Of a DNA stretch of 64,000 bases, positions 52,809 to 64,000 are shown one piece after another. The notes beneath the pieces were generated by a model that was not told the DNA's origin, did no database searches, and saw only the letters and a list, made by a program, of their open reading frames with translations. This DNA is from Sediminispirochaeta bajacaliforniensis DSM 16054. GTDB taxonomy: Bacteria > Spirochaetota > Spirochaetia > DSM-16054 > Sediminispirochaetaceae. Position 1 is the stretch's first letter. The number at the start of each line of letters is the position of its first letter. A program made the position numbers and the translations under genes. The DNA is taken from positions 47,983 through 111,982 of the forward strand of contig NZ_KB899416.1 of NCBI RefSeq assembly GCF_000378205.1, read 5' to 3'.

Positions 52809-54144
52809 GACGATCCGTCCTGTTCTGGACGATTCAGAGCGATTCCCTGGACTTGAGGATTTGAGATGGGTCTACTACCTTAGGCAGCATCCAAAGGCGC
52901 CTCTGTACAATTTCAAATCGGGAGACCGTCTCGATTCAGATGGGGTGGGGCGGCTGCACGGCTATAAGGGGTCGTTGCGGAAGCTTAGCGGTTCTTCACC
53001 CCTCTCCTTTATACGGGCGTTCTACAAAGAGGCCCGTTCGGATGTTCCCGCATACCGGAACTATCCGGCGGATTTTAACGATACTCCTTCCATGAATCGT
53101 GACGACCTGCGCAAGGCCCCCTGGGACTATGTGAAAGATAGTGCTTCGTTGGAAAATATCCTCTGTTATGCCACCTCGGGAACCACCGGAGCGCCCCTCG
53201 AGGTTATCTTTGATGCCACATGTGCCTCTTCCTGGTTGCCTCAGGTGGAATTGATGCTGGAGAAGGAAGGCTTCAGCCTGGAAAGGGGAGCAGGAACGAC
53301 AGCCGTCGCCCTGATCTGCCACCAACTGGAGACCCTGACCTATGCCTCCGCTTCATCCTATCTGGAAGGCTCCGGCTTCATCAAGGTGAACCTCCATCCC
53401 AAACAGTGGAGAGCCCCCTCGGATGCAAGCGACTACCTTCAGGGCTTAAATCCGGGACTTTTGACGGGAGACCCTCTGGCCTTTTCCGCCCTCATGGAGC
53501 TTGAGATTCCCTTACGCCCCCGTGCCGTGATCTCCAGTGCCATGTCCTTGAGCGAGGGATTAGCCGCCAAACTGGAAGAATACTTTCATTGTCCCGTCTA
53601 TGATGTCTACTCTATGACCGAATGCCGAAACATAGCCTTCAAGAGACAGGGAATCATGGAGAAGATGAGACCTGACCTCTATCTGGAAATTCTGGACCCC
53701 GAAGCGGAGCGTGTTTTGGGAGAAGGAGCGTGGGGAGAGCTGGCGGTCAGCGGCGGCAACAATCCCTATCTTCCCCTGGTCCGCTATCGGACGGGAGATT
53801 TCTGCCGTTTGAGAAACCAGGGGGGGCGGCAGTTTCTGGAAGATTTTCAGGGACGACTTCCCGTTCGCTTTTCCCTGCCCCACGGCGGCTGGATAAACAC
53901 GATAGATTTTTCCCGGGCCCTGGCTCCCTTGGCCCTGGCCTCCTTTCAAATTGCCCAGCAAAGGGATTTTTCTCTGGTCGTTCGTCATCAGGGGAGGGGA
54001 GAACTCTCCAGAAAAATCGAAGAGGCCGTCAGGGGCGTTTTGGAACAATACGGTGCAGAGAATCTTCCCATTTTCTTTGGAGATCCCTTGCCGGAAGATA
54101 CAGGACAGAAAACCTGTTCCTTTGTGACGGAGTTTGAGCGTTGA
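52795..54144 (+). CDS. PaaK-like adenylating enzyme (ANL superfamily)
   Basis: 449 residues, overlapping the previous gene by 14 bp. The ANL phosphate-binding loop is CYATSGTTGAPLEV near residue 125; further motifs are YDVYSMTECRNIAF (near 275) and LPLVRYRTGDFCRL (near 345), all like phenylacetate-CoA ligase. It should activate a carboxylate with ATP to an acyl-AMP, then pass it to CoA or another acceptor. The C-terminal region is short (449 residues in all) and lacks an obvious catalytic Lys block. What it activates is unknown; nicotinate or an acid linked to the neighbouring NAD genes is only a guess. Confidence 0.82.
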   Translation: MQGNKTIRPVLDDSERFPGLEDLRWVYYLRQHPKAPLYNFKSGDRLDSDGVGRLHGYKGSLRKLSGSSPLSFIRAFYKEARSDVPAYRNYPADFNDTPSMNRDDLRKAPWDYVKDSASLENILCYATSGTTGAPLEVIFDATCASSWLPQVELMLEKEGFSLERGAGTTAVALICHQLETLTYASASSYLEGSGFIKVNLHPKQWRAPSDASDYLQGLNPGLLTGDPLAFSALMELEIPLRPRAVISSAMSLSEGLAAKLEEYFHCPVYDVYSMTECRNIAFKRQGIMEKMRPDLYLEILDPEAERVLGEGAWGELAVSGGNNPYLPLVRYRTGDFCRLRNQGGRQFLEDFQGRLPVRFSLPHGGWINTIDFSRALAPLALASFQIAQQRDFSLVVRHQGRGELSRKIEEAVRGVLEQYGAENLPIFFGDPLPEDTGQKTCSFVTEFER

Positions 54145-55136
54145 AAAAAGTCGGCTTGTGTTTGGGCAAATACGCTCCCTTCCATCGGGGCCACGGCCTT
54201 GTCATAGAGACAGCTCTGAGCGAAATGGATCTGGTTCTTGTGTTGATTTACAACAGTCATGTGACATCCATCCCCCTGAAAAAGCGGGCGGACTGGATTC
54301 GCCGCATCTATCCCGAGCGGGTGAAGGTGATCGAGGCCTACGACGGTCCGGAAGCGACCGGTTACAGCCCCGAGATCAAAAGAAAGCAGGAAGACTATGT
54401 TTTGAAGAAGCTGGCAGGGTGGCAGATTCACAGCTTCTATTCCTCGGAACCCTACGGGGAACATATGAGCCGGGCCTTGGACTGTCGAAATCGTCAGGTT
54501 GATTGCCAGAGGCTACAGTTCCCCATATCGGCCACACTCCTGCGAGAGGATCCCTACACATACCGCTGCTTCCTCCGTCCCGAGGTCTACTTTGACCACG
54601 TGATCAAGGTCGTATTTCACGGAGCACCCAGTACGGGAAAGACCACCATTTCGGAGGCTCTGGCCCGGAAATTCCACACGGCCTGGATGCCTGAGTACGG
54701 TCGGGAATACTGGGAAAAACATGAAGTGGACCGAAGGCTAAGCCCCCGTCAGCTTCTGGAGATAGCCTGCGAACACAGAAAACGGGAACTGAGGGCTGTG
54801 TATGGGGCAAGGGATTTCTATTTTATCGATACCTGCGCACTTTCCACCTACCACTTTGCCCTGGATTATCACGGCACGGCCCTTCCCGAGTTATGCAGCC
54901 TGGCCGATGAGGCTGGAAGCCGCTACGATCTGCATATTCTTTGCGGCGATGATATCCCCTACGATGATACGCCCGACCGTTCGGGTGAGGTGTATAGATC
55001 AAGATTTCAAAAGAGATTTGAAAAAGATCTTCAAAAACGGCAGATCCCCTACATTCTGCTTACCGGTTCCCTGGAAGAGCGGATAGATAAGGTCTCCATA
55101 CTTTTGAAGCATACCAAGGAGTTCCATTCATGCTGA
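54141..55136 (+). CDS. nadR: NadR-like NMN adenylyltransferase / ribosylnicotinamide kinase
   Basis: 331 residues from TTG 54141 (TTGA overlap with the ANL gene). The N-terminal nucleotidyltransferase has GKYAPFHRGHGLVIETAL (residues 9-26) and ISATLLREDP (the SxTxxR motif). The C-terminal kinase has the P-loop VVFHGAPSTGKTTISEAL near residue 160-175. It lacks the helix-turn-helix of enteric NadR. It phosphorylates nicotinamide riboside and joins the product to ATP to make NAD; PnuC, encoded next, imports the riboside. Confidence 0.92.
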   Translation: MKKVGLCLGKYAPFHRGHGLVIETALSEMDLVLVLIYNSHVTSIPLKKRADWIRRIYPERVKVIEAYDGPEATGYSPEIKRKQEDYVLKKLAGWQIHSFYSSEPYGEHMSRALDCRNRQVDCQRLQFPISATLLREDPYTYRCFLRPEVYFDHVIKVVFHGAPSTGKTTISEALARKFHTAWMPEYGREYWEKHEVDRRLSPRQLLEIACEHRKRELRAVYGARDFYFIDTCALSTYHFALDYHGTALPELCSLADEAGSRYDLHILCGDDIPYDDTPDRSGEVYRSRFQKRFEKDLQKRQIPYILLTGSLEERIDKVSILLKHTKEFHSC

Positions 55137-55828
55137 ACTTTTTTTCCATCAACCATGTAGCCTTCACCGTCCTTCAGTATCCCATGAGCTATGTGGAGTT
55201 TCTGGGGACCATCTTTTATATATGGTCGGTCTGGCTGATTGCTCAAAAAAAGATGCTCACCTGGCCGGTCGGTATTATATCGGTCATCCTGTATGCATTT
55301 CTTTTCTATCAGATTCGTCTCTATTCTGATTTTCTGGAACAGCTCTACTACTTGGGGGCCAGTGTCTATGGATGGTGGTTTTGGGATAAAAAGAAAAAAG
55401 AGGATCAGGAGATCGCTGTTGTCCGCGGCACTCTAAAGAATAATATATTCTGGCTGGCCGGTATTCTCATCGTTTCGGGATTCACCGGCCTTTTGATGGG
55501 AAGAATCCATCTGATTTTTCCGAATGTCTTTCCCCAGCCGGCTGATTTTCCTTTCTGGGATGCCTTTACCACCATAAGTAGTTTTGCCGCCATGTTTCTT
55601 TTGGCCCGAAAACGATTTGAAAGCTGGTTTCTCTGGATTGTGGTTGATGTGATAGGAATCGTGCTCTATTACGTCAAGGGGGTGAAATTCCTTTCGCTGC
55701 TGTACGTCTTTCTGTTGCTTATCGCCCTTAAGGGCTTCTTAAGCTGGTGGTCCTCTTTGCGTAGTGTTCCGAATCCTGGTGATGGTCGGAACCCCACCCA
55801 TCTTGGGAGAGACCGTGATGGTATGTGA
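55130..55828 (+). CDS. pnuC: Nicotinamide riboside transporter PnuC
   Basis: 232 residues, overlapping nadR by 7 bp. Seven or so membrane helices with PnuC landmarks: SYVEFLGTIFYIWSVWLIAQ, LYSDFLEQLYYLGASVYGWW and WIVVDVIGIVLYYVKG. It brings nicotinamide riboside into the cell for NadR. The last 20 residues or so (SVPNPGDGRNPTHLGRDRDG) do not look like PnuC. They are encoded by the repeat that begins at 55762, so the original stop was probably lost when the repeat region arrived. It is the last gene of the overlapping run. Confidence 0.92.
   Translation: MLNFFSINHVAFTVLQYPMSYVEFLGTIFYIWSVWLIAQKKMLTWPVGIISVILYAFLFYQIRLYSDFLEQLYYLGASVYGWWFWDKKKKEDQEIAVVRGTLKNNIFWLAGILIVSGFTGLLMGRIHLIFPNVFPQPADFPFWDAFTTISSFAAMFLLARKRFESWFLWIVVDVIGIVLYYVKGVKFLSLLYVFLLLIALKGFLSWWSSLRSVPNPGDGRNPTHLGRDRDGM
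55762..55781 (+). repeat. 20-bp direct repeat, left copy (within the pnuC tail)
   Basis: TAGTGTTCCGAATCCTGGTG occurs here and, unchanged, at 56055-56074. The pair flanks copy B of the structured repeat. Confidence 0.85.
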
Positions 55829-55881
55829 CCGGCTGCTGCAAGAAAAAGGTCGGGGTAGAAAGGTCCCGTAATCTTTGGGGC

Positions 55882-55970
55882 CCGGGGCGAAGAGCCCCGG
55901 AGAAGGGGGTGCGCCGAGATCGCCGGGGGCTTCCCCCGGAAGCTCGGCGCAGGGGGAAGGCGTTCCCCCC
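55882..55970. repeat. Structured dispersed repeat, copy B
   Basis: Matches copy A at 12051-12142 over its whole length. Stems: CCGGGGC/GCCCCGG (55882-55900); GCGCCGAG (55911-55918) with CTCGGCGC (55943-55950) around CCGGGGG/CCCCCGG (55923-55939); and GGGGGAA/TTCCCCC (55952-55970). The rest of 55829-56210 has no gene that I can support. The strand is not known. Confidence 0.8.
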
Positions 55971-56054
55971 ACCAAAAAAGAGAAAGTCTGAAGGTCGAAA
56001 TTTATATGACAGGCAGGTATTCCTCTGCATTACCATTCGGCTGTTTCACGAGGA

Positions 56055-56074
56055 TAGTGTTCCGAATCCTGGTG
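56055..56074 (+). repeat. 20-bp direct repeat, right copy, and left end of a possible 149-bp element
   Basis: Identical to 55762-55781. Extended to 56077, it also matches, in inverted orientation, 18 of 23 bases at 56181-56203 (CACCACCAAT then ATTCCTGACACTA). The segment 56055-56203 therefore has imperfect terminal inverted repeats, as in a miniature transposable element. No target-site duplication is obvious. Confidence 0.6.
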
Positions 56075-56210
56075 GTGATATGCTGTTTTTGCCGAAGAAA
56101 ATCTTGATTTTTCCTTCTTGTCCCGATTTTTATACGTGTGTCTTTGTAAGGACTGAATAACAAAGGAATTATACTCTTTACACCACCAATATTCCTGACA
56201 CTATTTTGTA

Positions 56211-56289
56211 TTGACAAAAAAAAGAAATATGCGTTAGTATGCTTTAACCATATTAGTTAAGGCTAATTAAATTTTAGAAACCTAATATG
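56211..56289 (+). promoter_or_regulatory. Promoter and DtxR/TroR-like operator of the iron/heme operon
   Basis: TTGACA (56211-56216), then TTAGTA at 56234-56239 after 17 bp (or TAGTAT after 18). Just downstream, ATTAG (56252-56256), six bases, CTAAT (56263-56267) form a palindrome like the TTAGG-N-CCTAA sites of DtxR/IdeR/TroR metalloregulators. An outer pair CATATTAG (56249-56256) and CTAATATG (56282-56289) encloses the region. No GATAATGAT-type Fur box is visible. Binding by a manganese/iron regulator is inference. Confidence 0.5.
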
Positions 56290-56309
56290 ATGTTTGAAAG
56301 GAGTAAAGC

Positions 56310-56834
56310 ATGGATACCACCGGTGAAACCGGCTTGATCATATATTCAAGTAAAACAGGCAATACACGTACGCTGGCCCGGGGTGTGGTTCAGGGGCTTG
56401 ATATGCGGGTCAAACTGGCAGCAGTGGAAGAGAATGTAGACGCTTCATCCTACTCGTGGGTGATTGTCGGTTTTTGGGTGGATAGGGGAAATCTTGATGC
56501 CAAGGCTCGTTCATATGTAGAGGGGCTTTCTGGGTGTAAGGTAGGCCTTATCGGGACCCTCGGGGCCTATCCAGATTCGCCTCATGCCAAGGATGTCGAG
56601 AATCATGTAAGGGATGTCATATCTGCGAGAAACAAATATCTGGGATGCTTTTTATGCCAGGGACGGATTGATCCGGCCCTGACAAGGAAGTTTGAACAGC
56701 TGCCGCCTGATCATCCTCACGCTATGAATGAAGAACGTCGAAAGCGGCACACAGAGGCCGCACTCCATCCCAATGATGCAGATATTGCGGCTGCTACTGC
56801 AGCATGTGCGGAAATGATAAAGGCCGCAAGATAA
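56310..56834 (+). CDS. Flavodoxin-family protein
   Basis: 174 residues after AAAGGAG. FMN phosphate loop IIYSSKTGNTRTLARGVVQGL (12-32) and SYSWVIVGFWVDRGNLD for the ring-binding region; residues 90-100 (GTLGAYPDSPHAKDV) are also typical. It is the first gene of the heme-type operon. Flavodoxin-like proteins deliver electrons to ChuW/HutW-type radical SAM enzymes during anaerobic heme breakdown, which fits the gene at 58646. Confidence 0.85.
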   Translation: MDTTGETGLIIYSSKTGNTRTLARGVVQGLDMRVKLAAVEENVDASSYSWVIVGFWVDRGNLDAKARSYVEGLSGCKVGLIGTLGAYPDSPHAKDVENHVRDVISARNKYLGCFLCQGRIDPALTRKFEQLPPDHPHAMNEERRKRHTEAALHPNDADIAAATAACAEMIKAAR

Positions 56835-56836
56835 TC

Positions 56837-57841
56837 ATGAAACATATAGCCTCCAGCAGGATGCGCTTACTCCTGTGGGTACTCGTGATTGTCTTGGTGA
56901 TACTGCTTCTTGTGGGCGTTGCCTCCGGGAGTGTCCGAATTCCTCTGCGGACCGTCATCTCCGTGCTTACCGGTCATGCCGAAGCCGATGCCAATGCCAC
57001 GATTATTTTAGGAATACGTCTGCCCCGCTTACTTATGGCAATTTTGGTGGGGATGATGCTCTCTATGGCGGGAACGGTGGCACAGGCGGTGTTCCGGAAT
57101 CCTCTGGCGGATCCCTATATTATCGGTATTAGCGCGGGTGCCGTAGCAGGTGCAATTCTTGCGTTCTTTTTGGGATTGCCCGATGTCTACTACGGGATTT
57201 TTGCTTTCTTTACTGCACTGGCTACGGCGTTTCTCATTTTCCGTCTGGCGGGACGAAAAGGAAAAGCCGACACGGCAATGCTTCTCATTGTAGGGATAGC
57301 CGTGTCGTCGTTCTTGAGTGCCTTAACCTCCTTTGTCATGTATTCGGCTGGCGAGGATTCATACCGAGTGATGGTGTGGACCATGGGTTACTTGGGGGCG
57401 GCTACATGGGGCCGGGTAGGGCTACTGGTCGTGCCGCTTATCGCGTCGTCAGCCTACTTCCTCTATCTTCGACAGGATATTGATGCCTTGCTGATGGGGG
57501 ACGAAGAGGCGTATTCGCTTGGCATCGATGTTGGCCAGCTTAAGCGACGGTTATTACTGGTTACCAGCTTGATAGTCTCTTTTTCGGTGGCATTTACCGG
57601 TATGATTGGTTTTGTGGGACTCATTGTGCCCCATGCCATACGGCTCATTATCGGAAATAGTCACGCTCGTCTTTTACCTCTTGCTGCCTTTTCCGGTGGT
57701 GTCTTCCTGCTTTTTGCCGATACCCTGGCTCGTACACTGCTTGCGCCGACAGAGGTTCCTATAGGGGTGGTAACGGCTTTTTTCGGGGCCCCGTTCTTTC
57801 TGGTTTTAGCCGTTCGGGCCGGCCGGGGAGGCGCGGTATGA
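56837..57841 (+). CDS. Iron/heme ABC importer, permease (FecCD/BtuC type)
   Basis: 334 residues from ATG 56837 three bases after the flavodoxin stop. About ten helices; motifs SGSVRIPLRTV, LPRLLMAILVGMMLSMAGTVAQAVFRNPLADPYIIG and FVGLIVPHAIRLIIGNSHARLLPLAAFSGG are those of FecD, BtuC and HemU. It forms an importer with the ATPase behind it (ATGA overlap) and the binding lipoprotein at 59972. Confidence 0.94.
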   Translation: MKHIASSRMRLLLWVLVIVLVILLLVGVASGSVRIPLRTVISVLTGHAEADANATIILGIRLPRLLMAILVGMMLSMAGTVAQAVFRNPLADPYIIGISAGAVAGAILAFFLGLPDVYYGIFAFFTALATAFLIFRLAGRKGKADTAMLLIVGIAVSSFLSALTSFVMYSAGEDSYRVMVWTMGYLGAATWGRVGLLVVPLIASSAYFLYLRQDIDALLMGDEEAYSLGIDVGQLKRRLLLVTSLIVSFSVAFTGMIGFVGLIVPHAIRLIIGNSHARLLPLAAFSGGVFLLFADTLARTLLAPTEVPIGVVTAFFGAPFFLVLAVRAGRGGAV

Positions 57842-58656
57842 GTCTATGTGCGGAACATATCCATTTTTCCTACCGGGATAAGACGGTTCTTGCCGGTGTC
57901 GACTTTGCATTGCAACAGGGCGAGGTTTTTGGTTTGTTGGGCCCCAACGGATCGGGGAAATCGACCTGTCTGAAAACTGTATTGGGGTATCTCAAACCCT
58001 CCTCTGGTCGGATAGTTTTTGCAAGGTTCGGTTCTTTGCCCTACGGTTTACTGGTTGGTAAAGAGGTTGCCCGGCGGGTTGCCTTTGTACCGCAGCAGAC
58101 TGCATTACATTCGGCAATTACCGTTTTTGAAGCGATTCTTATGGGACGCTTGCCACATCTTGCCGATCGCTGGAGCGGTTACGGGGCGGAAGACAAAAAG
58201 ATCGTTCGTGAGGTGGTAGAGGCCTTGGGCCTGTGCCACTTAGTAGATCGAAATGTGACCTGTCTCTCTGGAGGCGAGTTGCAAAAAGTCATTATTGCCC
58301 GCTGCCTTGTACAGGAGAGCGATATTCTCCTGCTGGATGAAGCTACGGCAGGTCTCGACTTAAATCACGCTGTAGAAATCATGGAGTTTATGCGGCGAAA
58401 AGCGAAAGAAGAGTCGAAAAGCATCGTCGCAGTACTTCACGATGTGAATCTCGCTTCTCAATATTGCGATCGTATAGCGCTGCTTAAAAAAGGCCGTTTA
58501 CGCTACATCGGTACTCCTGAAGAGGTTATAAGCGAAACGGTACTGGAAGAGATCTACGGTATTCGGGCGAAGATCGGCTACGATGATGGCGGCAAGCCTT
58601 TCGTTTTGCCGCGGCGGATAAAAACTGCTGAAAGAGAGGTTGCCAATGTTTGCTGA
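57838..58656 (+). CDS. Iron/heme ABC importer, ATPase (FecE/HmuV type)
   Basis: 272 residues, overlapping the permease by 4 bp. Walker [22 protein letters not shown], signature LSGGELQKVIIARCLVQ, Walker B ILLLDEATAGLDLNHA, H-loop VLHDVNLAS. The segment at 60-75 (RFGSLPYGLLVGKEVARRV) is slightly longer than usual. It energises the FecCD-type permease. Confidence 0.94.
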   Translation: MSLCAEHIHFSYRDKTVLAGVDFALQQGEVFGLLGPNGSGKSTCLKTVLGYLKPSSGRIVFARFGSLPYGLLVGKEVARRVAFVPQQTALHSAITVFEAILMGRLPHLADRWSGYGAEDKKIVREVVEALGLCHLVDRNVTCLSGGELQKVIIARCLVQESDILLLDEATAGLDLNHAVEIMEFMRRKAKEESKSIVAVLHDVNLASQYCDRIALLKKGRLRYIGTPEEVISETVLEEIYGIRAKIGYDDGGKPFVLPRRIKTAEREVANVC

Positions 58657-59920
58657 ACGTTATCGCTCACACCATGATGCAGAAGCAAAATTAGCTTCTA
58701 TTTTGGGACTGTATGCCCATTCGCGTTCCGGAACAGTGAACTGGGAGGATGTGGAGCGGCCTCTCTACTCTGCGCCACCATCCGGGAGACGCTGCATCTA
58801 TATCCATATCCCGTATTGCGATAGAATTTGTGAATTTTGCAATCTTAATCGTACCGCTCGGGGACATACCGATTTAGATGCGTATACAGAGTATCTAATA
58901 AAGGAAATCGAGTGGTATGCCCGATATCCGTATATCAGGGATGGTCAGTTCGACGCCATATATTTTGGCGGCGGCACGCCCACCATTTTACAGACGGAGC
59001 AGCTTAGCCTGGTACTTCGAGCCTTACGCGACTCTTTTCATTTGTCAGAGGATTGTGAAATAACATTGGAATCGACACTTCATAATCTGCCGGCTGAAAA
59101 AAGCGCCCGCCTCCAGGAGGAGGGGGTGAACCGTTTGAGCCTTGGTGTTCAAACCTTTTCGTCCCGCGGAAGATCATTTCTCGGCAGAACAGGGGATGCA
59201 GAATATGCTATCGCTCGGCTACAGGCGATCCGGCAGCTCTTTTCCGGTGTCCTTGGAATAGACATTATTTACAGCTACTTCGATCAAAGTCTGGAAGAGG
59301 TAGCTCATGATGCTTCTCTTTGTTCTGATTTTTCCATTGACGGTGTGAGTTTTTATTCTCTCATGATTCACGACGGTTCCTCCTTGGGGCAGCGCATTGC
59401 GAAAGGTGAAATTCCCTTTGGCCGGAGCCTGGAAGATGATCGACAACGGCATAATCATTTTTATGAGGATATGCATGCGGGTGGATACGAAATGCTGGAG
59501 CTCTCCAAGCTTGTTCGTCCCGGCCGTGATGAATATCGGTACATACGAATTCGATATGAGAATGGTGATGTTCTTCCTATCGGGGCAGGGGCCGGGGGAC
59601 AGTTGGCTGGATACCGCATCTATTCCATGGCGCAGGGCCGCCGCTTTGCTTCGAAGATAGAACCTGCTTATGCGCAATACCACCGCGTGTTAGGCCATTT
59701 ACAGTTTGGTTGCTACGACCTTACAACCCTCTCGGAGGAATTAGGGCCGGATTCGTATGCTCCTTTGCGGGAACGAATGGACTATTTTGTCCGCAATGGG
59801 ATGCTGGTACCGGAAACGGATGATCTGTATACGTTAACCACCGATGGAATTTTCTGGGGAAATAATATTGCGGTGGACATATTGAAAGCGGCGATAGATG
59901 GGACGAAAGAACATCACTAG
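58646..59920 (+). CDS. ChuW/HutW-like radical SAM enzyme (anaerobic heme degradation)
   Basis: 424 residues from ATG 58646 (GAGAGG upstream), overlapping the ATPase by 11 bp. The radical SAM cluster motif CDRICEFC (CxxxCxxC) lies near residue 58 in YIHIPYCDRICEFC, followed by IYFGGGTPTIL and LSLGVQTFSSRGRSFLGR. The layout is that of HemN/HemW, with the C-terminal domain extended as in ChuW/HutW, which opens the heme ring without oxygen. Placement within a TonB/ABC iron operon with a flavodoxin supports ChuW/HutW over coproporphyrinogen oxidase; a HemW-type role is not excluded. Confidence 0.82.
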   Translation: MFAERYRSHHDAEAKLASILGLYAHSRSGTVNWEDVERPLYSAPPSGRRCIYIHIPYCDRICEFCNLNRTARGHTDLDAYTEYLIKEIEWYARYPYIRDGQFDAIYFGGGTPTILQTEQLSLVLRALRDSFHLSEDCEITLESTLHNLPAEKSARLQEEGVNRLSLGVQTFSSRGRSFLGRTGDAEYAIARLQAIRQLFSGVLGIDIIYSYFDQSLEEVAHDASLCSDFSIDGVSFYSLMIHDGSSLGQRIAKGEIPFGRSLEDDRQRHNHFYEDMHAGGYEMLELSKLVRPGRDEYRYIRIRYENGDVLPIGAGAGGQLAGYRIYSMAQGRRFASKIEPAYAQYHRVLGHLQFGCYDLTTLSEELGPDSYAPLRERMDYFVRNGMLVPETDDLYTLTTDGIFWGNNIAVDILKAAIDGTKEHH

Positions 59921-59971
59921 GCTTTCGCCTCTCGGCAAGAGAGGTCCTGGGCAGAAAAAAGGAGAAATATT

Positions 59972-60946
59972 ATGCGAAAGATAGTATATCTTGTTGCCGT
60001 TATCCTCGCTTTTGCAGGATGCGGAAATGAAAAGTCGTCTCATACGGATGCTGCATCTTCAGCTTCATCGGCAGATACCGGAAAGCAGCTCGCATCCGTT
60101 ACCATGGATGAAACGACGGGACATGCACGTGATGCATATGGTCATACCATTGAGGTTCGTCCATATCAAAGAATGGTAGTAGCTTCGCTGGGAGCCGTAG
60201 AAACACTGTATCTTATTGGGGGCGAAGATGCCATTGCTGCTATAGCAACCAGTCGTGGGGGTGTCTGGCCCGAGGAGAAGACAGCCGCGCTTCCCAGTGT
60301 GGGGAATGTGGCCCGTCCAAGTTTTGAGACGATTATATCCTTTGATCCCGACATCGTTATTCTCAGCGCCATGTCTTTGGATATCGCCGAGAGCCTATCC
60401 GGGCATAATATCCCCGTATTCATCCACGACGCCACCTCAATCGAAGATATTTTCGCTTCCGTAGAGCTTTTGGGCGATCTTTCGGCTAAAGAATCGGCAG
60501 CAGAGGCCTTGATAGCCGAAAAACGGGCTCGCCTGGCGGAAGTGGCATCCGCGGTTGCCAAGCGGACGGTTCGGCTAAAAGGTGCATTTCTCTATTCAGC
60601 TAATCCCGTCATGGGGTTTACCAACGAATCGCTTCCTGGCGAGATACTGAATCTCTTAGGGGTAACGAATATAGCCGTGGGGCTAAGCGGGAAGCGTCCT
60701 ATTATCTCATCTGAGCTCCTCGTATCAGAAAATCCCGATTTTCTTTTTATCTCCATGTCGATTGAGAATCCCGAAGCCTTGCTTAGTGCAGAATCTGCCG
60801 TTGCAAGAACTCGTGCAGGAAGAGAAGGCCACATCAGCACGATTCCTTCCTCTTTGATTCTGCGCCCCTCCCCACGTATTGTGGACGGAATTTCGACGCT
60901 CCAAGAGATTCTTGCGGAGATTCCTCCGGCCTCGGAAGAGGGATGA
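59972..60946 (+). CDS. Iron/heme ABC importer, substrate-binding lipoprotein
   Basis: 324 residues after AAAGGAG. Lipoprotein signal MRKIVYLVAVILAFAGC (lipobox AFAGC), a low-complexity Ser/Ala linker, then the two-lobed class III (BtuF/FhuD) fold: VVASLGAVETLYLIGGEDAIAAIATS, LPSVGNVARPSFETIISFDPDIVILSAMS and INVPVFIH-like IPVFIHDATS. It ferries the ligand from the outer-membrane receptor to the permease. It lies 51 bp after the radical SAM gene. Confidence 0.9.
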   Translation: MRKIVYLVAVILAFAGCGNEKSSHTDAASSASSADTGKQLASVTMDETTGHARDAYGHTIEVRPYQRMVVASLGAVETLYLIGGEDAIAAIATSRGGVWPEEKTAALPSVGNVARPSFETIISFDPDIVILSAMSLDIAESLSGHNIPVFIHDATSIEDIFASVELLGDLSAKESAAEALIAEKRARLAEVASAVAKRTVRLKGAFLYSANPVMGFTNESLPGEILNLLGVTNIAVGLSGKRPIISSELLVSENPDFLFISMSIENPEALLSAESAVARTRAGREGHISTIPSSLILRPSPRIVDGISTLQEILAEIPPASEEG

Positions 60947-60956
60947 GGAGCTTGTG

Positions 60957-61652
60957 ATGTTTTTGGGAACCTTTCACCATATTGTTGCATTCATTCAATT
61001 GGGAGGTATCCTTAACTGGATTCTTGTCGGGCTATACCTGGTTGTTCTTGTGCTTGCAGTGGATCGTTGTTCTTACTTTATTCGCACAGGATACCGGCGT
61101 AAGCGTCTCGTTTCAGGTATTGATTCGGCTTTTCTTGCATCCATATCGAATGATGGCCCCAATGGCCAAGAGATGGTTTTCCCTTGGCCAAAGCATTACA
61201 TCAGAAGCCAGCCGGTACGCATGATTGCCCTTGTCTTTGAAGATCGGCGGTCGACGAAAGAGTCTTTGGACGAGGCTGTGGATCGTGAAGGCTCCTCCAT
61301 ACGGAGGGAGATGGATCGTGGCATAGAGGCGCTTTCGGTCATTGGTAACATTGCTCCTCTGATGGGTTTACTTGGCACGGTGACGGGGCTTATGAGGGCT
61401 TTCCATCGCATCGAGTCCCTCGGCGGTACCGTCGATATTGCCGCTTTTTCCGGTGGTATCTGGGAGGCAATGATCACGACAGCCATCGGATTAGTCGTGG
61501 CTATTCCGGCCGTAGTTTTCTGCAGAGTCTTCGAAAAGATTGTAGAACATCGTGGTGAAGATATGGGGTATGTCGTTTCTCTCGTATCGGAAAGCTTGTA
61601 TGAGGAAACTACCGAGAAACCTCGGGCGAGGCAAAGCAGAGAGAGTGCCTAA
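60957..61652 (+). CDS. exbB: ExbB-like proton channel of the TonB motor
   Basis: 231 residues from ATG 60957 (GAGGAG upstream; GTG 60954 possible). MotA/TolQ/ExbB family: an N-terminal helix (ILVGLYLVVLVLAVDRCSYF), a cytoplasmic loop, and the conserved block IEALSVIGNIAPLMGLLGTVTGLMRAFHRIESLGG followed by GIWEAMITTAIGLVVAIPAVVF. It uses the proton gradient to drive TonB. One-base TAATG overlap with exbD. Confidence 0.94.
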   Translation: MFLGTFHHIVAFIQLGGILNWILVGLYLVVLVLAVDRCSYFIRTGYRRKRLVSGIDSAFLASISNDGPNGQEMVFPWPKHYIRSQPVRMIALVFEDRRSTKESLDEAVDREGSSIRREMDRGIEALSVIGNIAPLMGLLGTVTGLMRAFHRIESLGGTVDIAAFSGGIWEAMITTAIGLVVAIPAVVFCRVFEKIVEHRGEDMGYVVSLVSESLYEETTEKPRARQSRESA

Positions 61653-62053
61653 TGAAAACCTTTGGTGCCGTTCGATCTCGCCAAAACGGCTTGAATATGA
61701 CATCCCTCATCGATGTTGTTTTTATTCTTCTTATTTTTTTCATGATCGGATCAAGGTTTGAGAAGCCTGCAATTTCTCTTACTCTTCCGAACGCAACGAC
61801 GGGAGAACGGGTGGAGCGTAAAATAATCACCGTCTCTATGGATTCCGAGGGAAATTTGTATGTAGAGGGGAAAGCAATTGAATCGGCAGCCTTGGAGTCA
61901 TACCTTGCACCGTTGGCAACGGCCGATCCCGAGTTAACGGCATCTTTGGAATGCGACGGGGCAGTCCCTTTTGCAAAGGTGACGAAGGTTCTGGATTCTT
62001 TGAAGCGGACGGGAATTCTCAATGTGGCGGTTCGGCACGAATTCCCTCACTGA
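61652..62053 (+). CDS. exbD: ExbD-like component of the TonB motor
   Basis: 133 residues: short cytoplasmic N-terminus, one membrane helix with the key Asp in LNMTSLIDVVFILLIFFMIGS, and a periplasmic domain with EGNLYVEGKAI. It works with ExbB and TonB. Confidence 0.94.
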   Translation: MKTFGAVRSRQNGLNMTSLIDVVFILLIFFMIGSRFEKPAISLTLPNATTGERVERKIITVSMDSEGNLYVEGKAIESAALESYLAPLATADPELTASLECDGAVPFAKVTKVLDSLKRTGILNVAVRHEFPH

Positions 62054-62807
62054 TCGTCTTACCCCTATTGCACTCTGTGCGGTGGTGATCTTTGTTCACG
62101 GGGTTATTTGGGGAAGCTTTGATTTTTCTTTTGAAGCAGCTCAAAAACAACCTGAGCCCATGACCGTTAGTTTTACCACCCTTGAGGGGCTGGATGCTAC
62201 GCCTGCGGGCAGTGAGATTATCCCCCTTGAAGGTGATCCTGTGGTAGTGCAGAAGCCTCAGGAAACTCGCATAAAGGAGCCTTCCATGATGCCCGAAGTT
62301 TCAGCATCGGAGATAGAGGAGCTTCCCCTGACTGAGGTTCTCGAGACCGAAGTGAAGCCGGTTGAAAGCCCTCAAAGGAGCCTGGAGAAACCTCCGGAGA
62401 CTGCCCGGCACGTTCGAGAGGAGGCAAGCCCGGCTGAAGCCGCTTCCGTAGCTTCCGTTTTAAAAAGTGAAGCCGGTGTTTCTGCACCTCCCGGCAGGGA
62501 AGGGGGGGCGGCTTACGGTGAAAGCCTGTCCCTTGATTACCGGGCCATCATTCTTCGCCAGTTGGAAGAAGGGAAGGTTTACCCCGCGGCGGCTCGAAAA
62601 CGGGGAATAGCAGGCCCCGTAACCCTTTGTTTTTCTGTTGCTCCCGACGGAACAGTGTCCATGCTTTCCGTAGAAGAAGCCTCACATCGATTTTTGCGGC
62701 AGGCCGCTCTGGAATCTGTACGAAAGGCAGCGCCCTTTTCTTTTCCTGAGCGTCCTACTGGAAGGATCGATATGCAGGTAACGCTTGAATATCGGTTGGA
62801 AGAGTAG
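62022..62807 (+). CDS. tonB: TonB-family energy-transducing protein
   Basis: 261 residues, overlapping exbD by 32 bp. N-terminal membrane helix (LTPIALCAVVIFVHGVIWG), a long periplasmic linker rich in Glu, Pro and Val (about 40-160) and the C-terminal TonB domain YPAAARKRGIAGPVTLCFSVAPDGTVSMLSVEEASHRFLRQAALES. It links the ExbBD motor to the receptor encoded next. An internal start would shorten the helix, so the overlap seems real. Confidence 0.92.
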   Translation: MWRFGTNSLTDRLTPIALCAVVIFVHGVIWGSFDFSFEAAQKQPEPMTVSFTTLEGLDATPAGSEIIPLEGDPVVVQKPQETRIKEPSMMPEVSASEIEELPLTEVLETEVKPVESPQRSLEKPPETARHVREEASPAEAASVASVLKSEAGVSAPPGREGGAAYGESLSLDYRAIILRQLEEGKVYPAAARKRGIAGPVTLCFSVAPDGTVSMLSVEEASHRFLRQAALESVRKAAPFSFPERPTGRIDMQVTLEYRLEE

Positions 62808-62823
62808 AAATGAGGAGGATTTT

Positions 62824-64000
62824 ATGCGATATCCATCGGCGTTAGCATACGCCATAATTCTTAGTGTTGTTGGGACTCTTTCTGTCTTTGCACAGGAAGA
62901 AACAGAAAAGGAGCCTGCCGTTATTGTTGTAACAGGTGCCAAGGCCGCACAGGATATTGAGGAGACCGTCGAAGCGGTAGAAGTCGTTACGGCTGAAGAG
63001 ATCCAGGAGATGGGGGCAAAAAATGTCAAGGAAGTTATGGAAAACATCCCTGGTGTCATCATCTATAATCATCCTGTTTCAACGCTTATGATGCAAGGCT
63101 TTGCGCCGGAATATGTGAAGCTCCTTGTCAACGGCATTGAGATAGCAGGGGACGTCGGCGGGGCCACTCCTATAGCTCAATTACCCGCTTCTGAAATCGA
63201 ACGAATAGAGGTTGTCCGGGGAGCCTCATCAGTGCTCTATGGATCAGATGCCATGGGAGGCGTCATCAATATCATCACCAAGAAAGCGGAAAAAGAAAAG
63301 ATCTCCGCTTCTGTGGCCCAGGAAATTGCATCAAACTTACGATATTACGGGGAAGGATCTGCATCGTATGCAAATGATCTTTTTGCCCTCTCGGTGATGG
63401 GCTCCTTTGACTACGACGATGGTAAATCTGTTGACGAGGAAAACAATCTTGGTCGTGAAATTTCGATCTACGAGGTTCCCTACGCTTGTCTGGGATCCGT
63501 CAGAGGAAGCGCCACCTGGTTTCATCCCGGAGGTGAGCTTGAACTATACGGAACCTGGGCCGACTCATCACGGGAGTCCAGTACTAACCTGGAAGGAGGT
63601 GTCTCCTACGATGATACCAAACTGGAAGGGGGGCTACGGGAGCGTTATTCCTTTTCCGATTTTCTTTCGTTGGAAGGGTTTTTTAGCGTTAAGAGCTATG
63701 ATCACTACGTGGACCAACTTAACTATACCTATGATACATCCAGTGAGGAGAAGAGTCTCTTTGACGATATGGAAAGTGAGGTTACTGTTTCTTGGGAGCC
63801 TTCTATTTCCCATTCATTGCTGGTCGGAGTAAACGGGAAACGCGAAAACATGGAGGGCGATGCTTTCGATGAGCAGAAATCAGCGTCACAAATGAGCGTT
63901 TTTACTCAGGATACGTGGAATATTGGTGGTGTCGATCGATTTCGTATTGTTCCGGGGCTGCGCTTTGACTATAGCGTGCCGGAAGAGTCGGAAGATGATC
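62824..64000 (+). CDS. TonB-dependent outer-membrane receptor (cut by window end)
   Basis: The first 392 codons of an open frame that runs off the right edge. ATG 62824 after GAGGA; signal peptide MRYPSALAYAIILSVVGTLSVFAQ; then a TonB-box-like PAVIVVTGA and the plug domain (VEVVTAEEIQEMGAKNVKEVMENIPGV, ASSVLYGSDAMGGVINIITKKA). The beta-barrel begins at about residue 165. As the operon holds ChuW-like and FecCD-type genes, heme or an iron chelate is the probable ligand; a cobalamin receptor would also fit the plug. The C-terminal half is missing, so the ligand cannot be read here. Confidence 0.93.
   Translation, partial: MRYPSALAYAIILSVVGTLSVFAQEETEKEPAVIVVTGAKAAQDIEETVEAVEVVTAEEIQEMGAKNVKEVMENIPGVIIYNHPVSTLMMQGFAPEYVKLLVNGIEIAGDVGGATPIAQLPASEIERIEVVRGASSVLYGSDAMGGVINIITKKAEKEKISASVAQEIASNLRYYGEGSASYANDLFALSVMGSFDYDDGKSVDEENNLGREISIYEVPYACLGSVRGSATWFHPGGELELYGTWADSSRESSTNLEGGVSYDDTKLEGGLRERYSFSDFLSLEGFFSVKSYDHYVDQLNYTYDTSSEEKSLFDDMESEVTVSWEPSISHSLLVGVNGKRENMEGDAFDEQKSASQMSVFTQDTWNIGGVDRFRIVPGLRFDYSVPEESEDD

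What the first reader, a model, noticed from the sequence alone, without database searches (positions are those of the whole stretch)
56211..64000. Anaerobic heme acquisition operon with a DtxR/TroR-like, not Fur-like, operator
Seen: flavodoxin, FecCD permease and ATPase, CxxxCxxC radical SAM enzyme, lipoprotein, ExbBD-TonB and receptor in one direction; ATTAG-N6-CTAAT follows the promoter. Known: ChuW/HutW opens heme without oxygen using a flavodoxin. Inference: a complete import-and-break-down unit under a manganese/iron sensor like the spirochaete TroR.
Basis: partly seen in the sequence, partly recalled or inferred. Interest (0 to 1): 0.5.

Follow-up and report, generated by a model that had tools for sequence, protein, structure and literature searches.

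The report
Spirochaete heme-iron operon with IdeR-type operator
This is a complete bacterial gene set for importing heme and probably breaking it open without oxygen, and it carries the same iron-type control site as the iron-uptake genes of many related spirochaetes, which points to an overlooked small iron sensor rather than to the known spirochaete manganese sensor TroR.

Summary
Observation confirmed. Window 56211-64000 holds a one-direction operon: flavodoxin, FecCD permease, ATPase, radical SAM enzyme, binding lipoprotein, ExbB, ExbD, TonB, receptor; just past the window end follows a lipoprotein with two HmuY (hemophore) domains. The radical SAM protein falls in one clade with proteins of Fusobacteria hmu-type loci, sister to ChuW, apart from HemW/HemN. 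The flavodoxin's only PDB relative is heme-bound FldH and its heme-ligand histidine is kept: probably a heme carrier/anaerobilin reductase (HmuF), not the electron donor. Similar operons are published for Treponema denticola.

The operator TTAG-N6-CTAA is real. Of 3328 dyads tested it ranks first before feoB (19 of 28 regions, next best 8) and before hmu operons (7 of 15 in uniform 300-nt regions, next best 6). It is the frame of the IdeR 'half site', not TroR's operator (TTTGAT-N2-ATCAAA), which sits with one mismatch at this genome's own troA. G001 lacks TroR and three Treponema genomes lack Fur, yet all keep the box. The candidate they share is a short DtxR-family protein without SH3 domain and with an Asp/Cys metal site. 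So: DtxR-like yes, TroR no. Binding and iron response are untested.

The parts
56211..56240 (+). sigma-70-like promoter TTGACA-N18-TAGTAT
   Evidence: 10 of 12 consensus; also present in G001 (read)
56253..56266 (+). operator TTAGTTAAGGCTAA (TTAG-N6-CTAA; ATTAG..CTAAT 56252-56267), 12 nt behind the -10, i.e. over the likely start site
   Evidence: same dyad before orthologous hmu operons and feo genes
56274..56285 (+). possible second, N4-spaced dyad TTAGAAACCTAA; weak, one base different in G001
   Evidence: read; no test
56310..56834 (+). flavodoxin-fold protein, HmuF/FldH type (PF12641)
   Evidence: BilS model NF045594 101 bits, below its cut-off of 155; only PDB match 8g64, E 3.1e-22, with the heme-ligand His aligned (numbering)
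56838..57841 (+). HmuU-type FecCD permease (ATG 56804 also possible)
   Evidence: PF01032
57838..58656 (+). HmuV-type ABC ATPase
   Evidence: PF00005; heme ABC ATPase model NF010068 216 bits, below its cut-off of 261
58646..59920 (+). HmuW-type radical SAM enzyme, probable heme-degrading methyltransferase
   Evidence: TIGR04107 254 bits (cut-off 400), HemW model 146; tree
59972..60946 (+). HmuT-type periplasmic binding lipoprotein
   Evidence: PF01497; lipobox by eye
60957..61652 (+). ExbB
   Evidence: PF01618
61652..62053 (+). ExbD
   Evidence: PF02472
62022..62807 (+). TonB
   Evidence: PF03544, TIGR01352 over its cut-off
62824..64000 (+). HmuR-type TonB-dependent receptor, continuing to window-equivalent 64818 (L006:7807-9801)
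   Evidence: best NCBIfam model TonB-hemin 137.9 bits, all but equal to B12 receptor 137.5, both below cut-off. A tandem-HmuY lipoprotein gene follows outside the window at L006:9920-10972

Best explanation
An hmu-type heme-iron operon (hmuF-U-V-W-T-exbB-exbD-tonB-hmuR-hmuY). An outer-membrane receptor powered by its own ExbBD-TonB, with a tandem HmuY hemophore lipoprotein, takes in heme; HmuT-HmuUV carry it into the cell; HmuF holds it and passes it to HmuW, which opens the ring without oxygen and frees Fe(II), and HmuF then reduces the anaerobilin. Transcription is switched off when iron is plentiful by a small DtxR-family repressor (154 aa, G000:C13:156815-157276, no SH3 domain, Asp/Cys/Glu/His metal site) that binds one dimer per TTAG-N6-CTAA half-site box lying over the transcription start; the same protein controls feoA-feoA-feoB and a flavodoxin gene. 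Shown here by sequence: gene content, kinship, box conservation, candidate regulator. Inferred: substrates, chemistry, binding, metal, direction of control.
For: Heme unit; chemistry of relatives in PMC10404700 (passages). Box: first of 3328 dyads in 28 feo upstream regions (19; next best 8); in hmu upstream regions first too, 9 of 13 (next 6) with longer regions for two loci or 7 of 15 (next 6) with 300 nt for all. In G000 11 sites in 4.57 Mb, among them hmu, feoA, feoA, fldA. Regulator: of the two families searched, a short DtxR protein is the type found in all ten genomes with an exact box in the hmu stretch and in all 19 genomes with a box at feo. G001's only PF02742 protein is the short one; G027, G155, G185 have no Fur-family match, and the TroR operator differs. 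Short-regulator gene within 1.2 kb of feoB in 7 of 46 genomes with both (coordinates; gaps). Exact box starting 20 nt before the short-regulator gene in G008, G033, G068. Cys at the IdeR Cys102 position, where TroR-type proteins have Glu. Half-site binding by one IdeR dimer is published (PMC10317159 passages).
Against: No binding or expression data. In this genome and G001 the short-regulator gene has no TTAG-N6-CTAA box; a perfect 7-nt-arm palindrome (TAGTATA-N4-TATACTA) covers its start instead. Only 4 of 30 short-regulator loci (one with no upstream sequence) have an exact box. 9 of 28 feo regions and 8 of 15 uniform hmu regions have no exact box, and at hmu the lead over the next dyad (AAAA-N6-TTTT, 6) is small. 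G263 has boxes but its short regulator has Gly in place of the Cys. Box against intact metal site at hmu: 9 of 11 to 1 of 4, Fisher p 0.077. Box against presence of a short regulator at feo: p 0.041 on 30 loci but 0.095 (19 of 26 to 0 of 2) after dropping two badly set loci. Genomes are related. The hmu box has 8 of the 10 half-site letters. TIGR04107 is below its curated cut-off. The receptor scores alike for heme and B12 models; permease and ATPase score highest for B12/corrinoid models.
Confidence: 0.68

Rival explanations
1. TroR, the long DtxR-family protein of the tro operon, reads the box.
For: G000 has a TroR-type gene at the end of a tro operon; T. denticola TroR answers to both Mn and Fe (PMC2628430 abstract and passages).
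Against: TroR's known operator is TTTGAT-N2-ATCAAA, found with 1 mismatch at G000's own troA and not up to 2 mismatches before hmu in 12 of 13 genomes scanned, G000, G001 and the Treponema genomes among them (G216 has two 2-mismatch matches). G001 has no TroR-type protein but keeps the boxes.
Confidence: 0.08
2. A Fur-family protein reads the box.
For: G000 has two clear Fur-family genes and one borderline match that reads like another HTH type.
Against: No match in G027, G155 and G185 (one contig each, 99% complete), which have the box before hmu. In G000 one of the two lies beside a peroxiredoxin gene, PerR-like (by eye). The dyad is not the classical Fur box (recalled; not scored).
Confidence: 0.05
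3. The box is a true iron-regulon site, but is read by a regulator of another family that was not searched for.
For: Only PF02742 and PF01475 were searched; the short-regulator gene of G000 lacks the box.
Against: TTAGG-N4-CCTAA is the published IdeR half site, and short DtxR genes sit next to feoB in several genomes.
Confidence: 0.16
4. The operon imports another tetrapyrrole, such as a cobamide, and the radical SAM enzyme acts on that.
For: Permease and ATPase score highest for B12/corrinoid models and the receptor all but equally for heme and B12.
Against: Place beside ChuW in the tree, kept heme ligand in the flavodoxin, HmuY domains, iron-type box, and no Rfam match in 54000-64000.
Confidence: 0.06

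Closest known systems
hmu operons of Fusobacterium nucleatum (hmuTRUVWF) and of Treponema denticola and T. pedis (PMC10404700, passages)
   Same: Same core: binding protein, permease, ATPase, HmuW-type radical SAM enzyme, HmuF-type flavodoxin; ExbBD, TonB and receptor are listed for such clusters too. G185, whose length is that recalled for T. denticola ATCC 35405, has SBP-FecCD-ATPase-Fld-rSAM.
   Different: Flavodoxin first instead of last; own ExbB-ExbD-TonB-receptor inside the unit; a tandem-HmuY gene at the end. Fusobacterium regulation was not compared.
ChuW / HutW systems of enterobacteria and Vibrio
   Same: Radical SAM enzyme of the sister clade in a heme-uptake locus (ChuW; HutW not tested).
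   Different: ChuX/ChuS/ChuY instead of an HmuF-type flavodoxin (PMC10404700 passages); TIGR04107 567 bits for ChuW against 254 here.
IdeR/DtxR iron regulon of Actinobacteria
   Same: Half site TTAGG-N4-CCTAA has the frame TTAG-N6-CTAA; box over the start/-10 region; Cys102, Glu105, His106 equivalents.
   Different: Single half site instead of the 19-bp four-repeat box; regulator of MntR size without SH3 domain, Asp instead of Met10, ancillary residues 83 and 98 not kept, Gly at the Gln43 place.
TroR of Treponema
   Same: DtxR family, spirochaete, metal uptake.
   Different: Different operator; Asp, Asn or Gln with Glu in the metal site; long C-terminal domain in the relatives here.

Membership tests
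HmuW/ChuW/HutW anaerobic heme-degrading radical SAM enzymes | CxxxCxxC cluster motif | tested here: met
   C60, C64, C67 invariant in six orthologues
HmuW/ChuW/HutW anaerobic heme-degrading radical SAM enzymes | groups with ChuW/HmuW-type proteins, not HemW/HemN | tested here: met
   22 rows in one clade 100/98, joined to the ChuW clade at 96/96; HemW and HemN outside but on long branches; HutW and F. nucleatum HmuW not included
NCBIfam equivalog TIGR04107 (strict ChuW/HutW) | score over the curated cut-off of 400 | tested here: not met
   254; two Cetobacterium proteins 215 and 208, G185 254, G217 229, ChuW 567: the strict model leaves this branch out, so no membership of the equivalog is claimed
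HmuW/ChuW/HutW anaerobic heme-degrading radical SAM enzymes | SAM-dependent opening of heme | not testable with these tools
   -
HmuF/FldH heme-binding flavodoxins | kinship to FldH and heme-ligand His134 | tested here: met
   8g64 the only PDB match at E <= 0.001, E 3.1e-22; query His137 aligned with chain His137 = His134; Ala147, His150, Pro151, Asp155 equivalents kept
HmuF/FldH heme-binding flavodoxins | no stable semiquinone; anaerobilin reduction | not testable with these tools
   -
IdeR/DtxR operator | 10-letter half site TTAGG-N4-CCTAA | tested here: not met
   hmu box has 8 of 10 letters (TTAGT-TAAG-GCTAA); both feoA boxes of G000 have 10 of 10
IdeR/DtxR operator | 19-bp box TTAGGTTAGSCTAACCTAA | tested here: not met
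   by eye 14 of 19 at 56253-56271 (sequence, consensus)
TroR operator | TTTGAT-N2-ATCAAA | tested here: not met
   none before hmu of G000 up to 2 mismatches; 1 mismatch at troA
Fur regulon | a Fur-family gene in each genome with the box | tested here: not met
   no match in G027, G155, G185, G217; 8 of 12 genomes have one
DtxR family (candidate regulator) | PF02742 over cut-off and primary metal site | tested here: met
   50.4 bits, cut-off 27; Asp, Cys, Glu, His
HmuY hemophores (gene after the window) | PF14064 over cut-off | tested here: met
   41.4 and 40.0 bits for the two halves, cut-off 27; heme binding not testable

The most novel reading that the evidence does not exclude
Many Spirochaetia run their iron regulon (feo, heme import and breakdown, flavodoxin, and new members such as an MMPL exporter operon and a methyltransferase pair) without Fur or TroR, by an MntR-sized DtxR-family repressor with a hybrid Asp/Cys metal site and no kept ancillary site or SH3 domain, working as a single dimer on IdeR half sites. 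This would be a minimal iron-sensing form of the DtxR family, and would give the Fur-less treponemes their missing iron regulator.
Probability: 0.55. Interest if true: 0.65.

Novelty: new variant of a known kind. Interest (0 to 1): 0.46.

Why it matters
The heme operon itself is a new member of a published kind. The newer part is the control: an IdeR-half-site operator recurring across the class, also before the heme operon of the genome whose length matches T. denticola, where no Fur-family match was found. It names one small protein as the probable iron sensor, separates it from the Mn/Fe sensor TroR, and gives a testable case of the question raised in PMC10317159, whether IdeR half sites are used in other species.

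Tried and rejected
TroR as reader of the box. Fur as reader. Cobalamin riboswitch or other known RNA upstream: no Rfam match at gathering score in 54000-64000. Autoregulatory box as general proof: only 4 of 30 short-regulator loci have one, so it is used only as support. A statistical link between regulator and box: at hmu 9 of 11 against 1 of 4 (p 0.077); at feo 19 of 27 against 0 of 3 (p 0.041), which falls to 19 of 26 against 0 of 2 (p 0.095) once G063 and G067, whose upstream regions were badly set, are dropped; both have no box. Not claimed as shown, and my confidence was lowered from 0.70 to 0.68 for it. The 9 of 13 at hmu used 1010-nt regions for G050 and G113, chosen after their boxes had been seen, and left out G079 and G090 (no box) and G080 and G151 (cut at contig ends); with 300 nt for 15 loci it is 7 of 15. 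G079 and G090 have no exact box anywhere in their 18 and 17 kb stretches. G217 and G216 have 1 mismatch, G008 2. In G050 and G113 the box lies about 1.0 and 0.4 kb before the gene counted as first; in G129 the exact box lies before the receptor and a 1-mismatch box at the operon head. Of 38 sites in G185 only the 15 given as loci and the hmu one were looked at; 11 of the 15 were inside genes, so in that AT-rich genome the bare 14-mer alone is a poor predictor. The hairpin behind the HmuY gene was first taken as the operon's terminator, but no T-run follows it on this strand. No structure was predicted.
Full report
What is there. The window is G000:C11:47983-111982 of a 4.57 Mb, 75-contig genome. 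Its nearest relative, G001, is one contig of 4,653,970 bases, the length given for Spirochaeta (now Sediminispirochaeta; renaming recalled) smaragdinae in PMC3035371 (passages), so the window most likely comes from the same genus. From 56310 nine genes run in one direction with overlaps or gaps of at most 51 nt: flavodoxin, FecCD permease, ATPase, radical SAM enzyme, binding lipoprotein, ExbB, ExbD, TonB, receptor. The receptor runs past the window end (to L006:9801) and is followed 118 nt later by a 350-aa lipoprotein whose two halves each match PF14064 HmuY over its cut-off (41.4 and 40.0 bits, cut-off 27). A 10-pair hairpin lies behind that gene (L006:10996-11019), but it is listed for the opposite strand and no T-run follows it on this one, so the end of the operon is not fixed.

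What the enzyme is. NCBIfam gives TIGR04107 ChuW/HutW 254 bits, HemW 146, HemN 104. The curated cut-off of 400 is not reached, but neither do two Cetobacterium proteins (215, 208), G185 (254) or G217 (229) reach it, while ChuW scores 567. In a maximum-likelihood tree of 42 rows, 22 proteins (spirochaetes, two Cetobacterium, Leptotrichiaceae, one Clostridiales) form one clade (100/98), joined to the clade of E. coli ChuW (96/96); HemW, HemN and four other spirochaete proteins of unknown kind lie outside. HemN and HemW have long branches, and HutW and F. nucleatum HmuW themselves were not included; 'HmuW-type' rests on locus content (one Cetobacterium locus has exbB-exbD-rSAM-receptor-FecCD-ATPase-SBP with the flavodoxin divergent). 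An orthologue occurs in 17 of 297 genomes of the class at E <= 1e-70. The core Fld-FecCD-ATPase-rSAM-SBP is kept in G001, G008, G049, G129, G216 and G217; G001 and the last three also have ExbB-ExbD-TonB-receptor, and G216 and G217 have a following gene that looks like the HmuY-type lipoprotein (by eye, not scanned). PMC10404700 (passages) reports such clusters in Treponema denticola and T. pedis, so the operon is of a published kind.

What the flavodoxin does. Its only PDB match at E <= 0.001 is 8g64 (E 3.1e-22), whose numbering and residues fit the heme-bound FldH of F. nucleatum described in PMC10404700. With the paper's numbering (chain minus 3), His134, the heme ligand, aligns with His137 here, and the equivalents of Ala147, His150, Pro151 and Asp155 are kept. 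In F. nucleatum HmuF carries heme to HmuW and reduces anaerobilin, while another flavodoxin gives the electrons.

The operator. TTAGTTAAGGCTAA lies at 56253-56266, 12 nt behind the -10 hexamer. ATTAG-N6-CTAAT occurs once in the window with 0.01 expected. The 14-mer occurs 11 times in the genome: before hmu, before feoA1 and feoA2 of a feoA-feoA-feoB operon, between fldA and a divergent gene, before an MMPL-LolA-DUF1302 set, at the start of an O-methyltransferase frame, 101 nt before a gene that reads like phosphoglycerate mutase, behind one gene, and inside three genes. G001 keeps the first six of these. In 28 regions upstream of feoB (G000 and relatives) it is present in 19, the next of 3328 dyads (256 half sites by 13 spacers) in 8. 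Upstream of hmu it is in 9 of 13 regions (next 6) or, with 300 nt for all and G079 and G090 put back, in 7 of 15 (next 6); it ranks first each time, but the lead at hmu is small and several genomes are near kin. Exact boxes were seen in 10 of 17 hmu stretches. In G185, whose contig length of 2,843,201 is that recalled for T. denticola ATCC 35405, the box is TTAGCTATGGCTAA just before the first gene. In G049 boxes also precede two FeoA genes and a FecCD permease; four of its 13 sites lie near transposase-like, intron-like or unrelated genes (by eye).

Who reads it. IdeR/DtxR bind TTAGGTTAGSCTAACCTAA as two dimers; [quoted passage not shown] TroR's operator, read from the oligos of PMC2628430, is ATTTTGATATATCAAAAT in T. 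denticola. G000's troA promoter has TTTGATTATTCAAA, and no such site up to 2 mismatches precedes hmu in G000. G000 has two PF02742 proteins: a TroR-type one at the end of a tro operon and a 154-aa one. G001 has only the short one; G050, G080 and G113 likewise, but these are drafts. G027, G155 and G185 have no Fur-family match. The short type is present in each of the ten genomes with an exact box in the hmu stretch and in each of the 19 with a box at feo (TroR and Fur were not searched in most of these). Its gene lies within 1.2 kb of feoB in 7 of the 46 genomes that have both (G010 and G035 5 nt, G053 64, G040 400, G055 452, G054 629, G026 1118; many are drafts). Three genomes of one genus (G008, G033, G068) have an exact box starting 20 nt before the short-regulator gene; 4 of 30 loci have one in the stretch scanned. 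Of 21 short proteins aligned, 17 carry Asp or Met at IdeR position 10, Cys at 102, Glu105 and His106; TroR-type proteins carry Asp, Asn or Gln with Glu. Per PMC10317159 Met/Cys favours iron, and MntR has Asp or Asn with Glu, so the hybrid makes iron plausible but not certain. Gln43, the one residue of IdeR that hydrogen-bonds the first C of CCTAA, aligns with Gly in the G000 protein (my placing), in keeping with the loose letters next to TTAG in the site table (position +5: G 0.38, T 0.34); this is inference.

Against. G000 and G001 have no box at the short-regulator gene but a different palindrome over its start. G263 has boxes and a short regulator without the Cys. G079, G090 and G217 have short proteins that lost the ligands; the first two have no box, G217 has one with 1 mismatch. 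The links between regulator and box are not significant once corrected (p 0.077 and 0.095), and genomes are related, so counts overstate independence. Other regulator families were not searched.

Prior print. Five searches with DtxR, TroR, spirochaete, Treponema, feo, IdeR or heme terms listed, beside the TroR paper, no paper whose title or shown abstract start describes a DtxR-family iron regulon in spirochaetes; one search showed 15 of 332 papers, the others their full lists of 8, 6, 10 and 9. This covers only the open-licence library, and only listings were read. The pathway is known; the operator assignment and its candidate reader were not found in print.

Noticed in passing
L006:9920-10972 (just past the window end): Last gene in line encodes a lipoprotein with two tandem HmuY domains (PF14064 in each half), a possible double hemophore in a spirochaete.
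   Followed up: partly
L056:4740-9241 (box at L056:9276); G001 counterpart L308: An MMPL exporter, LolA-like protein and DUF1302 protein behind an exact TTAG-N6-CTAA box, kept in G001: possible new members of the iron regulon.
   Followed up: partly
L055:2293-4911; G001 counterpart L309: Two Methyltransf_2/Dimerisation-type O-methyltransferases flanking a small protein, with an exact box at the start of the first frame, kept in G001; function unclear.
   Followed up: partly
L054:3684-8066: A lipoprotein-like protein with no Pfam match, a TonB receptor and a CbiK chelatase with a lipoprotein-like start, next to the fldA/HD-GYP box: possibly an exported metal chelatase.
   Followed up: partly
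L002:1283-1300 and the same place in L064 (short DtxR gene start): A palindrome TAGTATA-GTGT-TATACTA overlaps the start codon of the short regulator in G000 and G001: a different, perhaps autoregulatory, site.
   Followed up: no
G079, G090, G217 (L291, L292, L293): Short DtxR homologues with the metal ligands replaced (Arg, Ala, Glu, Gln): possible metal-blind forms.
   Followed up: no
window 55910-55951 and 56054-56204: GC-rich inverted repeat (19-nt arms, 79%) and a longer imperfect one (24-nt arms, 103 nt apart) upstream of the hmu promoter.
   Followed up: no
window 54141-55828: NadR-like and PnuC-like genes (names by recall, no family search) form a pair upstream of the heme operon.
   Followed up: no
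L141 and L146 (G151 and G263): Nearly identical radical SAM genes in two draft genomes placed in different families (tree distance about 0.005): contamination or recent transfer.
   Followed up: no
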